Assembly (NCBI GenBank): GCA_012799995.1
Contig: JAAZKE010000042.1
Coordinates: 1 to 49,763, forward strand
Direction of reading: 5' to 3'
Length of the DNA: 49,763 bases
From: Chloroflexota bacterium
GTDB taxonomy: Bacteria; Chloroflexota; Anaerolineae; Anaerolineales; Anaerolineaceae
Positions 1-2,380 of this stretch are shown here, piece after piece (positions within the stretch are counted from its first letter, which is position 1; each line of letters opens with the position of its first letter). A program made the position numbers and the translations under genes. The notes beneath the pieces are model-generated. The model ran no database searches, was not told the DNA's origin, and worked only from the letters and a program-made list of their open reading frames with translations.

Positions 1-72
1 CTCATGAACGCTGAGCCCATCGTTGACGAGACCGATAGCTTGTTTCTTTTCCTCTATACTGTATTTTGTCAT
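1..72 (-). CDS. Transposase OrfA, N-terminal fragment (runs off left edge)
   Basis: Twenty-four codons are visible, starting MTKYSIEEKKQAIGLV. This matches the opening of the helix-turn-helix OrfA protein of IS3-family elements, which binds the element ends and is joined to the DDE integrase OrfB by frameshifting. The start follows an AGGAGG ribosome site about 10 bases upstream. The reading frame is open to the window edge, so the gene may be intact beyond it. The call rests on the N-terminal style together with the inverted-repeat-like end at 126. Confidence 0.65.
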   Translation of the reverse strand, partial: MTKYSIEEKKQAIGLVNDGLSVHE

Positions 73-126
73 AAAAACTGCACCTCCTCTCTTGAATTTA
101 TTGCCCAATTTTTGGGGTGCAGTTCA
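1..126 (-). mobile_element. End of an IS3-family (IS150-like) insertion sequence, cut by window edge
   Basis: Read on the minus strand, the element begins at 126 with TGAACTGCACCCC, which resembles the terminal inverted repeat of IS150-type IS3 elements (5'-TG start, GCACCC core). It continues through a leader of about 50 bases into the start of a transposase-like reading frame at 72. A strong ribosome site (AGGAGG) lies about 10 bases before that ATG. The other end is outside the window, so element length, the second inverted repeat and the target duplication cannot be checked. The bases just outside (127-129, aac) would be the first target-site copy if the usual 3-bp duplication applies. 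Confidence 0.7.
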
Positions 127-222
127 AACAGCTGGGGATCTTTTTTATTTAACAATAGATTTGAACATCGGAAAAGATCATATATTTCGGTAACTTTTGT
201 TGGGAATAGATACAATTTCACT

Positions 223-1266
223 ATGAAAAAGACCCTTTGGCTGCTGATCTTTGCAGCTGTCGTTCTGTGCGCTAGTTGGGTGCAGGCATCCGCCGAAAGG
301 GTGATTGTCATCGAAGAAGCCGGTGAGATCAACTCGCTGACCCAGGCGCTGGCTTCTTTGCCGGACGATGCTGGCGAGGTAACGCTTCAGATCGCCAGCC
401 AACTCATGGCTGAAGAGGATGCGCGCGTGATCGTTCCATCAGACAAGGGAATCACCTCACTGACGATCGAAACCCCACCCGGGGTTGAGGATGTTTCTTT
501 GTTACAAGTGGTCGAACTGTACGCCAACGGAATTCCTCTGACAATTGGGGAAGGAATCGTAATGCCGAACGGCAGCATTTTTGGCGGCGCTTTCGCTGAT
601 CTATATTCAAGCGCAACGGTGGAGTCAACCAACCTGAAGATCTTTGGCTTTGCTGCCTACGTCTACGGTGGCGGAAAAGCGTTCGATGGCAGCCGCAGCG
701 TAGTCCGCGGTCTGGCTGAGGTCGAAATCGGGCCAAACAGCCGCATCTACTGGGAAGTTTTTGGCGGCGGGCTGGCAACAGGCAAAGACAGTTTTACATC
801 TGTACAGGCAACTTCGGTTTCAATCCATGGCAAAGCGGATTATGCGCTGGGCGGCGGATCTGCGCAGGATGGCGGGGCAACCAGAGTGGAAACGCAGTCG
901 CAAATCAGGCTCTATCCGGAAGGCTCTGTTTTGATCGCGCTTTTTGGTGGCGGCTGCGCCCAGGGAGCAGGCAGCCTGGTGCAGTCCGCGGGCGCCAAAC
1001 TGACAGTATCCGGCACAGCCGGGTGGGTTTTTGGCGGAGACTTCGCCTATCAGGCAGGGGAAACCGTTATGAATGGCCTGGCATTTGTCGAGCTGACCAA
1101 AGAGGGAACTGCGCGTGAGCTTTACGGCGGCAGCTTCGCCACCGACGAAAACAGTAAAGCGAGTGTAAACGAAACAACTGTACAGGTATTCGGAACCACA
1201 CAAATCAGTTCTCCGCTTGGAATGGAAGCCAATGGTGGAGAAACAAAAGTGATTTCGCAACCATAA
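223..1266 (+). CDS. Secreted glycine-rich tandem-repeat protein, function unknown
   Basis: The start at 223 is chosen because it opens a clean signal peptide (MKKTLWLLIFAAVVLCASW, cleavage probably after QASA near residue 24). The frame is open further upstream to position 4, but that part lies inside the insertion-sequence end and has no ribosome site. The mature protein has a non-repetitive N-terminal region (about residues 25-120). Seven repeat units follow to the C-terminus (residue 347), each opening with GG or GGG followed by a small residue and Ala, with unit lengths alternating about 29 and 32 residues. Regular short hydrophobic stretches between glycines suggest a beta-solenoid. It has no membrane anchor, sortase signal or catalytic motif. 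Related GGG-turn repeats occur in surface proteins of gut Firmicutes, but I cannot name the family. The ribosome site is weak, and expression after the upstream insertion is uncertain. Confidence 0.75.
   Translation: MKKTLWLLIFAAVVLCASWVQASAERVIVIEEAGEINSLTQALASLPDDAGEVTLQIASQLMAEEDARVIVPSDKGITSLTIETPPGVEDVSLLQVVELYANGIPLTIGEGIVMPNGSIFGGAFADLYSSATVESTNLKIFGFAAYVYGGGKAFDGSRSVVRGLAEVEIGPNSRIYWEVFGGGLATGKDSFTSVQATSVSIHGKADYALGGGSAQDGGATRVETQSQIRLYPEGSVLIALFGGGCAQGAGSLVQSAGAKLTVSGTAGWVFGGDFAYQAGETVMNGLAFVELTKEGTARELYGGSFATDENSKASVNETTVQVFGTTQISSPLGMEANGGETKVISQP
583..1263 (+). repeat. Seven protein-level repeats alternating about 29 and 32 residues
   Basis: Units begin at residues 121, 149, 181, 210, 242, 271 and 302 of the secreted protein. 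Their lengths are 28, 32, 29, 32, 29 and 31 residues, with the last running to the end. Each starts GGA, GGG, GGD or GGS, has Ala at about position 5, and ends in an aromatic or hydrophobic pair just before the next glycine turn. The DNA is not repetitive at nucleotide level, so the units are old or under divergent selection rather than recently duplicated. Confidence 0.7.
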
Positions 1267-1316: not shown

Positions 1317-2000
1317 ATGGAATACAAAATTGAAGGCACACCATTTCCAGTAGTCCAGTGTACGCTGGCCAACAACGAACGGATGATCTCCGAGAGCGGG
1401 GCAATGGCATGGATGACCCCCAACATTCTGATGGAAACCACTTCCCGCGGCGGGCTTGGAAAGATTTTAGGCAGAATGGTCTCCGGTGAGTCTCTTTTCC
1501 TCAACACCTATACCTCCAATGGCGTTGGGATGATCGCATTTGCTTCTTCCTTCCCGGGTTCAATCCTGACATTTGATATCTCACCGCAGAACGAGGTCAT
1601 CGTACAGAAATCCGGCTTTCTGGCTTCCGAAGCCGGCGTCGAACTGTCGATGTTCTTCAACCGTAAATTCAAGACCGGTCTTTTCGGCGGTGAAGGTTTC
1701 ATCATGCAGCGACTGTCCGGCCATGGGAAAGCGTTTGTCGAAATTGACGGCTACTGCAAAGTCTTTGAACTGCGTCCTGGCGAGAAAATGCTGATTGACT
1801 CCGGATACCTCGCTGCGATGGAAACCACCTGTACCATGGACGTCAAAACGGTCACCGGCGGACTCAAATCAATGGTTTTCGGCGGTGAAGGGCTCTTCAA
1901 CACCGAAGTCACTGGCCCGGGAAAAGTTTATCTGCAGACGCAACCGATTAGCACACTGGCAAAGGCGCTCAGCCCTTTCTTCACTAAGTCTTCAGATTAA
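1317..2000 (+). CDS. AIM24/TIGR00266 family protein
   Basis: This 227-residue protein belongs to the AIM24 (DUF124, TIGR00266) beta-sandwich family. Supporting features are the N-terminal Y-I-GTPFPVVQ segment, the conserved GES-F glycine/serine turn (SGESLFLNTY, about residue 56) and the late GGEGLFN motif (about residue 195) that closes these proteins. The length is normal for bacterial members. The molecular role of bacterial members is not established; the yeast relative acts in mitochondrial inner-membrane organisation. There is no signal peptide or membrane segment, so it is probably cytoplasmic. The ATG follows GAAAGGT by a few bases. It lies 50 bases after the repeat protein on the same strand and may be cotranscribed with it. 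Its stop codon sits inside a perfect inverted repeat. Confidence 0.85.
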   Translation: MEYKIEGTPFPVVQCTLANNERMISESGAMAWMTPNILMETTSRGGLGKILGRMVSGESLFLNTYTSNGVGMIAFASSFPGSILTFDISPQNEVIVQKSGFLASEAGVELSMFFNRKFKTGLFGGEGFIMQRLSGHGKAFVEIDGYCKVFELRPGEKMLIDSGYLAAMETTCTMDVKTVTGGLKSMVFGGEGLFNTEVTGPGKVYLQTQPISTLAKALSPFFTKSSD

Positions 2001-2064: not shown

Positions 2065-2124
2065 TATTTTCCTCTCTAACACCATCATTGATTTGGTAAG
2101 ATTCTTCAATCTTTATAAATTTAA

Positions 2125-2380
2125 CAAGCGTTGAAGGGAACGAGTAAACCGTCACCACCTGTACCAGAGAGAGATGAAAGGTGCGAAATCTCACAGACTA
2201 CGGTTGAAAATCATCCCAGAGCTTCGGGAACCAACATCACAAGCGATCAGTAATTTCCGACAGCAGCCCACTGTTACCCGGGTATCCCGATTCTTCGGGA
2301 GCAGATTGTCCGAATAAATCGGAAATTTAGGTGGTACAGCGGAAAAGTTTTCGCCCTAAACGCGGCGATTTTTTATTTTA
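2125..2380 (+). promoter_or_regulatory. T-box riboswitch, isoleucine specifier (AUC), controlling ilvBNCD
   Basis: Stem I spans about 2131-2226: GAAGGGA at the base pairs with TCCC and CTTC on the 3' side, the 5' strand carries the GAGTA element, and the distal part has the AGAGAG bulge. The specifier loop on the 3' strand reads TTGAAAATCA, giving codon ATC (2210-2212), isoleucine, followed by the usual purine. A stem with a TTCT loop lies near 2287-2300. The T-box itself is AGGTGGTACAGCGG (2329-2342). Its TGGT would pair with the ACCA end of a tRNA with discriminator A. TTAGG (2327-2331) pairs with CCTAA (2354-2358) in the antiterminator. The competing terminator is TCGCC (2351-2355) with GGCGA (2364-2368) followed by a T run. 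Uncharged tRNA-Ile should therefore permit read-through into ilvB. A probable promoter lies in the AT-rich stretch 2088-2121, but its boxes are ambiguous. Confidence 0.93.

What the first reader, a model, noticed from the sequence alone, without database searches (positions are those of the whole stretch)
223..1266. Secreted protein with seven repeats that alternate 29 and 32 residues
Units begin with a GG/GGG turn and alternate in length in strict order (28, 32, 29, 32, 29, 31). This suggests a two-rung beta-solenoid in which odd and even coils differ, for example with a 3-residue bulge on one side. No known domain name fits, and the DNA shows no recent duplication.
Basis: seen in the sequence. 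Interest (0 to 1): 0.6.

Follow-up and report, generated by a model that had tools for sequence, protein, structure and literature searches.

The report
Secreted beta-solenoid with alternating coils
This gene of a filamentous gut and sludge bacterium (Flexilinea) makes a secreted, rod-like protein whose coils alternate between a shorter and a longer form in all 13 full-length relatives aligned; the family has no name in the databases searched, it is probably a structural or adhesive surface protein, and nobody has tested what it does.

Summary
P0001 (window 223-1266, 347 aa, signal peptide) has seven units starting at F/Y/L-GG, spaced 28, 32, 29, 32, 29, 31 residues. Eight of the 13 aligned proteins, P0001 included, show exactly this; the other five show 27, 31, 29, 31, 29, 31. 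Units two apart resemble each other far more than neighbours, and strict odd/even is the best of 35 possible splits. AlphaFold2 (13 sequences, pLDDT 95, pTM 0.89) gives a regular all-beta repeat, with a 2-residue turn in odd units and a 4-residue turn in even ones. The long coil is optional: paralogue subfamily B has only 27-29-residue units with 2-residue turns, one B protein has lost exactly one unit, and subfamily C carries an extra one. All 14 sampled Flexilinea genomes have the family; no genome of another genus matched the A-family profile. There is no Pfam, NCBIfam, PHROGs or PDB sequence hit, and no significant Foldseek hit (best PDB E 0.02, TM about 0.25). No Lys, Arg, His or Glu is invariant, which argues against the known beta-helix enzymes. 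Best reading: a non-catalytic, acidic, secreted scaffold or adhesin. New variant of a known kind; function untested.

The parts
223..294 (+). signal peptide (residues 1-24, cleavage expected after ...VQASA)
   Evidence: sequence inspection; AF2 helix 2-17; hydrophobic N-terminus in the orthologues that are complete at the N-terminus
295..579 (+). N-terminal cap and short lead-in coil (residues 25-119): conserved SLxxALxxLPxxAGxVT...PxDKGITxLTI...ANGIP
   Evidence: alignment A1; AF2; shared with paralogue subfamilies B and C; B version has a non-significant profile match to the N-terminus of pectin methylesterase 5c1c, E 0.3
580..663 (+). unit 1, odd/short, 28 aa, 2-residue turn
664..759 (+). 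unit 2, even/long, 32 aa, 4-residue turn
760..846 (+). unit 3, odd/short, 29 aa
847..942 (+). unit 4, even/long, 32 aa
943..1029 (+). unit 5, odd/short, 29 aa
1030..1122 (+). unit 6, even/long, 31 aa; invariant D273
1123..1215 (+). unit 7, odd type with 2-residue turn, residues 301-331; invariant S304, D308, S311
1216..1263 (+). partial eighth unit (residues 332-347), resembles the first half of an even unit (LGMEANGGETKV)
   Evidence: sequence; AF2 strands 334-336 and 340-345
1317..2000 (+). neighbouring AIM24/TIGR00266 family gene, same strand, 50 bp downstream; adjacent in 9 of 14 genus genomes, elsewhere in the genome in 5

Best explanation
P0001 is an exported, acidic beta-solenoid: an N-terminal cap, then seven stacked coils of about 30 residues that alternate between a short type (2-residue corner turn) and a long type (4-residue corner turn, flanking strands one residue longer). 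The F/Y-GG(G)xA motif of every coil is probably a buried tight bend that holds the stack together, and the alternating corner lets neighbouring coils interlock or gives a ridge every second coil. It most likely works without catalysis, as a rigid secreted scaffold or adhesin in the cell surface layer or matrix of filamentous Flexilinea. Shown: the repeat, its alternation, its conservation in the aligned homologues, a confident all-beta repeat model, a signal-peptide-like N-terminus. Inferred: closed right-handed solenoid, buried GGG, the surface or matrix role.
For: Confident regular model, pLDDT 95.1, pTM 0.89, with the strand pattern recurring unit by unit. Large indels between relatives are one whole unit: B-type protein L027 lacks one 27-residue unit, and C carries a roughly 30-residue unit that A lacks; this fits one coil per unit. 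Foldseek neighbours of both models are mainly beta-helices and beta-solenoids, though none is significant. In P0001 the mature chain has pI 4.3 with 47 Gly in 323 residues; the only charged invariants are D273 and D308, and no Lys, Arg, His or Glu is invariant. Present in 14 of 14 genus genomes, with paralogue B carrying a helical N-terminus and a Pro-rich linker, an arrangement that would suit display.
Against: No experiment. Model coordinates could not be inspected, so handedness and closure are inferred. No anchor (lipobox, LPXTG, transmembrane segment) was seen in P0001 by eye, so how it would be held at the surface is unknown. Invariant D273, S304, D308 and S311 cluster in units 6-7 and could be a binding or catalytic site. 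The long-turn residues vary except for a common Gly, which speaks against a conserved binding ridge.
Confidence: 0.55

Rival explanations
1. It is a degraded or divergent carbohydrate-active beta-helix (pectate lyase, pectin methylesterase, polygalacturonase type) or a carbohydrate-binding module with a site at units 6-7.
For: N-terminal cap resembles the start of pectin methylesterase in the B profile (5c1c, E 0.3) and pectin methylesterase is the top Foldseek neighbour of the B model; for P0001, GH136 is first. D273, S304, D308 and S311 are invariant and close in the repeat register.
Against: All those scores are non-significant; no Pfam family for these enzymes hits any member of A1 or A2; no invariant Lys, Arg, His or Glu, so the catalytic sets of PME, pectate lyase and GH28 (as known to me) cannot be conserved.
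Confidence: 0.2
2. The repeated unit is half a coil: two units (about 61 residues) make one large coil, so alternation reflects two sides of one rung.
For: The strongest self-similarity is between unit pairs 2-3 and 4-5, i.e. a 61-residue period.
Against: Indels of a single unit occur in relatives, and subfamily B has short units without alternation.
Confidence: 0.08
3. Ice-binding or antifreeze-like flat beta-solenoid.
For: MpAFP 3p4g is the second PDB hit by E-value and has a probability of 0.63, E 0.025; one orthologue grazes the grass antifreeze beta-roll model at E 0.073.
Against: The strand face reads mixed charged and polar by eye, with no regular TxT array (sequences); TM-score 0.27; named sources of relatives include goat gut samples.
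Confidence: 0.03
4. All-beta repeat but not a solenoid (for example a beta-prism or a row of hairpins).
For: Superpositions on known beta-helices are poor (rmsd 12-15 A, TM about 0.25).
Against: Nearest neighbours of both models are mainly beta-helices; whole-unit indels fit a stack.
Confidence: 0.1

Closest known systems
Pectin-lyase-like right-handed beta-helix proteins (pectin methylesterase, pectate lyase, polygalacturonase, GH136)
   Same: secreted; predicted all-beta coils; N-terminal cap with a short helix and TIxEAL-like motif; nearest Foldseek neighbours
   Different: no significant sequence or structure match; coils of about 30 residues; GGG bend; no conserved catalytic set; strict short/long alternation
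Chlamydial polymorphic membrane proteins (Pmp repeat region, PF02415; PMC10715098)
   Same: coils built around a buried GG motif (GGA[IVL], with GGG variants) in a predicted beta-helix; surface proteins
   Different: no FxxN partner motif in P0001, no autotransporter barrel, no PF02415 hit, fixed short turns instead of variable omega-loops
MpAFP RTX-like antifreeze beta-helix (3p4g)
   Same: extended beta-solenoid, Foldseek probability 0.63
   Different: E 0.025, TM 0.27; no obvious nonapeptide calcium repeat in P0001 by eye

Membership tests
beta-solenoid (structural class) | tandem coils of similar length with the same strand pattern | tested here: met
   E---EEE----E11--E5 and E---EEE---E12----E5-6 in strict order, pLDDT about 98 over the units
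beta-solenoid (structural class) | parallel stacking of successive coils, handedness | not testable with these tools
   coordinates not released; Foldseek neighbours are mainly right-handed beta-helices but non-significant
pectin-lyase-like enzymes (PME, PL, GH28) | significant profile match | tested here: not met
   no Pfam or PDB-sequence match
pectin-lyase-like enzymes (PME, PL, GH28) | conserved catalytic Lys/Arg/Asp/His set | tested here: not met
   invariant columns contain only D273 and D308 among charged residues; D206 is 12 of 13
Chlamydial Pmp repeat (PF02415) | profile match and paired FxxN/GGA[IVL] | tested here: not met
   no PF02415 hit at E 10; no FxxN in the sequence by inspection
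Chlamydial Pmp repeat (PF02415) | C-terminal autotransporter barrel | tested here: not met
   protein ends at unit 8; no PF03797 hit
Flexilinea solenoid family defined here (A, B, C) | profile-profile similarity over cap and repeats | tested here: met
   A-B E 4e-20, A-C E 2e-25

The most novel reading that the evidence does not exclude
A previously undescribed class of beta-solenoid with a period of two coils (about 61 residues), in which a 2-residue and a 4-residue corner alternate regularly, found in this survey only in the genus Flexilinea.
Probability: 0.3. Interest if true: 0.5.

Novelty: new variant of a known kind. Interest (0 to 1): 0.32.

Why it matters
It adds an unnamed, apparently genus-specific secreted family to a common but poorly studied group of filamentous Chloroflexota from animal guts and anaerobic sludge. 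It also offers a natural experiment on repeat design: the same cap and coil occur with alternating coils (A), with only short coils (B) and mixed (C), and whole coils are gained or lost. If the alternation is truly regular in three dimensions it would be a useful template for beta-solenoid design.

Tried and rejected
Family searches of P0001, A1 and A2 members in Pfam, and of A1 members in NCBIfam and PHROGs: only sub-threshold or isolated matches. Abhydrolase_5 hits two A1 members (best E 4.7e-5); the one followed up scores 16.8 bits against a cut-off of 27 over residues 179-271, inside the Gly-rich repeats, so it was rejected. PDB sequence search of P0001, A1 and A2: nothing usable. Plasmid, phage and viral-contig searches: no relatives. 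Two scans of 84,980 species genomes: the first pattern set found no relative, the alignment-based one found 12 loci, labelled Flexilinea, Leptolinea or uncultured Anaerolineaceae/Chloroflexi; these scans depend on short motifs and can miss remote relatives. A match of another genus (G032) to profile A2 covers only the N-terminal helical part (5-60), so it was not counted. AIM24 as an obligate partner: rejected, the genes are apart in five genomes. Promoter scan: no forward-strand site near the start; upstream alignment uninformative.

Full report
OBSERVATION. Window 223-1266 encodes 347 residues starting MKKTLWLLIFAAVVLCASWVQASA, a typical export signal (by inspection). The longer frame from base 4 is not supported: bases 1-127 are the end of a mobile element (identical in contig C24).

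CHANCE. Unit-to-unit alignment score is 25.9 against 1.9 +/- 1.5 after shuffling within units. With the GG start of each unit held fixed it is still 7.9 standard deviations above shuffles. Length order alone is weak (three short and three long lengths alternate in 2 of 20 orders), but sequence type gives the same partition: same parity 34.1, different parity 21.3, and odd/even ranks first of 35 splits. The strongest pairs are 3-5 (50.7) and 2-4 (44.9), suggesting ancient duplication of a 61-residue pair. DNA shows no recent duplication.

RELATIVES. The genome is a 2.3 Mb assembly. A search of 101 genomes (P0001's own, its genus and other relatives) found the family in 14 of 14 genomes of one genus and none elsewhere; profile A1 in 396 class genomes matched only that genus; profile A3 in 147 family genomes likewise. 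Named records identify the genus as Flexilinea, Anaerolineaceae (F. flocculi TC1 and MAGs; some MAGs are labelled Leptolinea). Of 13 aligned proteins, P0001 included, eight have exactly the spacings 28, 32, 29, 32, 29, 31 and five have 27, 31, 29, 31, 29, 31. Alternation therefore survived single-residue deletions in units 1, 2 and 4.

STRUCTURE. AF2 with 13 sequences: pLDDT 95.1, pTM 0.89. Odd units read E---EEE----, an 11-residue strand (with a two-residue break in units 1 and 5), a 2-residue turn, then E5 or so; even units read E---EEE---, a 12-residue strand, a 4-residue turn, then E5-6. So the three extra residues are turn +2, strands +1 each, preceding turn -1. Foldseek finds nothing significant (best PDB E 0.021, TM 0.24); the neighbours are mainly beta-helices or beta-solenoids. 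I could not inspect coordinates.

PARALOGUES AS CONTROLS. Subfamily B (own genome C87, P0002) has the same cap after a helical N-terminus and Pro-rich linker; its units are 29, 29 and 27 with 2-residue turns only. L027 lacks exactly one 27-residue unit (one MAG, so an assembly error is not excluded). Subfamily C (about 580 aa) has two cap-plus-repeat domains with mixed lengths, and relative to A carries one extra unit. A-B and A-C are homologous by profile comparison (E 4e-20 and 2e-25). Conclusion: one unit is most likely one coil, and strict alternation is an elaboration in subfamily A.

FUNCTION. Mature P0001 is acidic (pI 4.3) and Gly-rich. Invariant residues are mostly Gly and small or aromatic core positions; charged invariants are only D273 and D308. 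This does not fit the catalytic sets of pectin-lyase-like enzymes (from general knowledge), although the cap of subfamily B has a weak, non-significant resemblance to pectin methylesterase by sequence (E 0.3) and by fold. The long turns share only a Gly, so they look structural rather than ligand-specific. I therefore favour a secreted rigid scaffold or adhesin; a polysaccharide-binding site around units 6-7 remains possible. The downstream AIM24 gene is adjacent in 9 of 14 genomes and separate in 5, so it is not an obligate partner.

CLOSEST KNOWN. Pectin-lyase-like beta-helices (membership not met), chlamydial Pmp repeats with buried GGA motifs in AF2 models (PMC10715098; membership not met), MpAFP (non-significant). 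No library of predicted cellular structures was on hand, so novelty of the fold is not established.

Noticed in passing
window 1-127: End of an insertion sequence: the identical 127 bases also begin contig C24, and the reverse strand from base 72 reads MTKYSIEEKKQAIGLVNDGLSVHE, like the start of an IS3-type OrfA (family by recall). The contig breaks inside this element; its end lies 96 bp before the solenoid gene start.
   Followed up: partly
L027, 1201-2154 (-): A subfamily B paralogue lacking exactly one 27-residue coil, in frame, compared with the nine other aligned B sequences.
   Followed up: partly
L018, L017, L030 and G005:C141: 580-residue relatives with two cap-plus-repeat domains joined by a Pro/Gln-rich linker; full-length matches to profile A3 in five of the 14 genus genomes, two copies in G005.
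   Followed up: partly
L002, 1120-2178: Own-genome paralogue with a predicted N-terminal helix (ATKQALE repeats), Pro-rich linker and C-terminal GCY conserved in the aligned B proteins.
   Followed up: yes
window 2122-2361: T-box leader (Rfam RF00230, 107.6 bits) upstream of an acetolactate synthase, ketol-acid reductoisomerase, dihydroxy-acid dehydratase gene run.
   Followed up: no
G012:C10:41285-41869: A second, divergent AIM24 copy in one genome of the genus.
   Followed up: no
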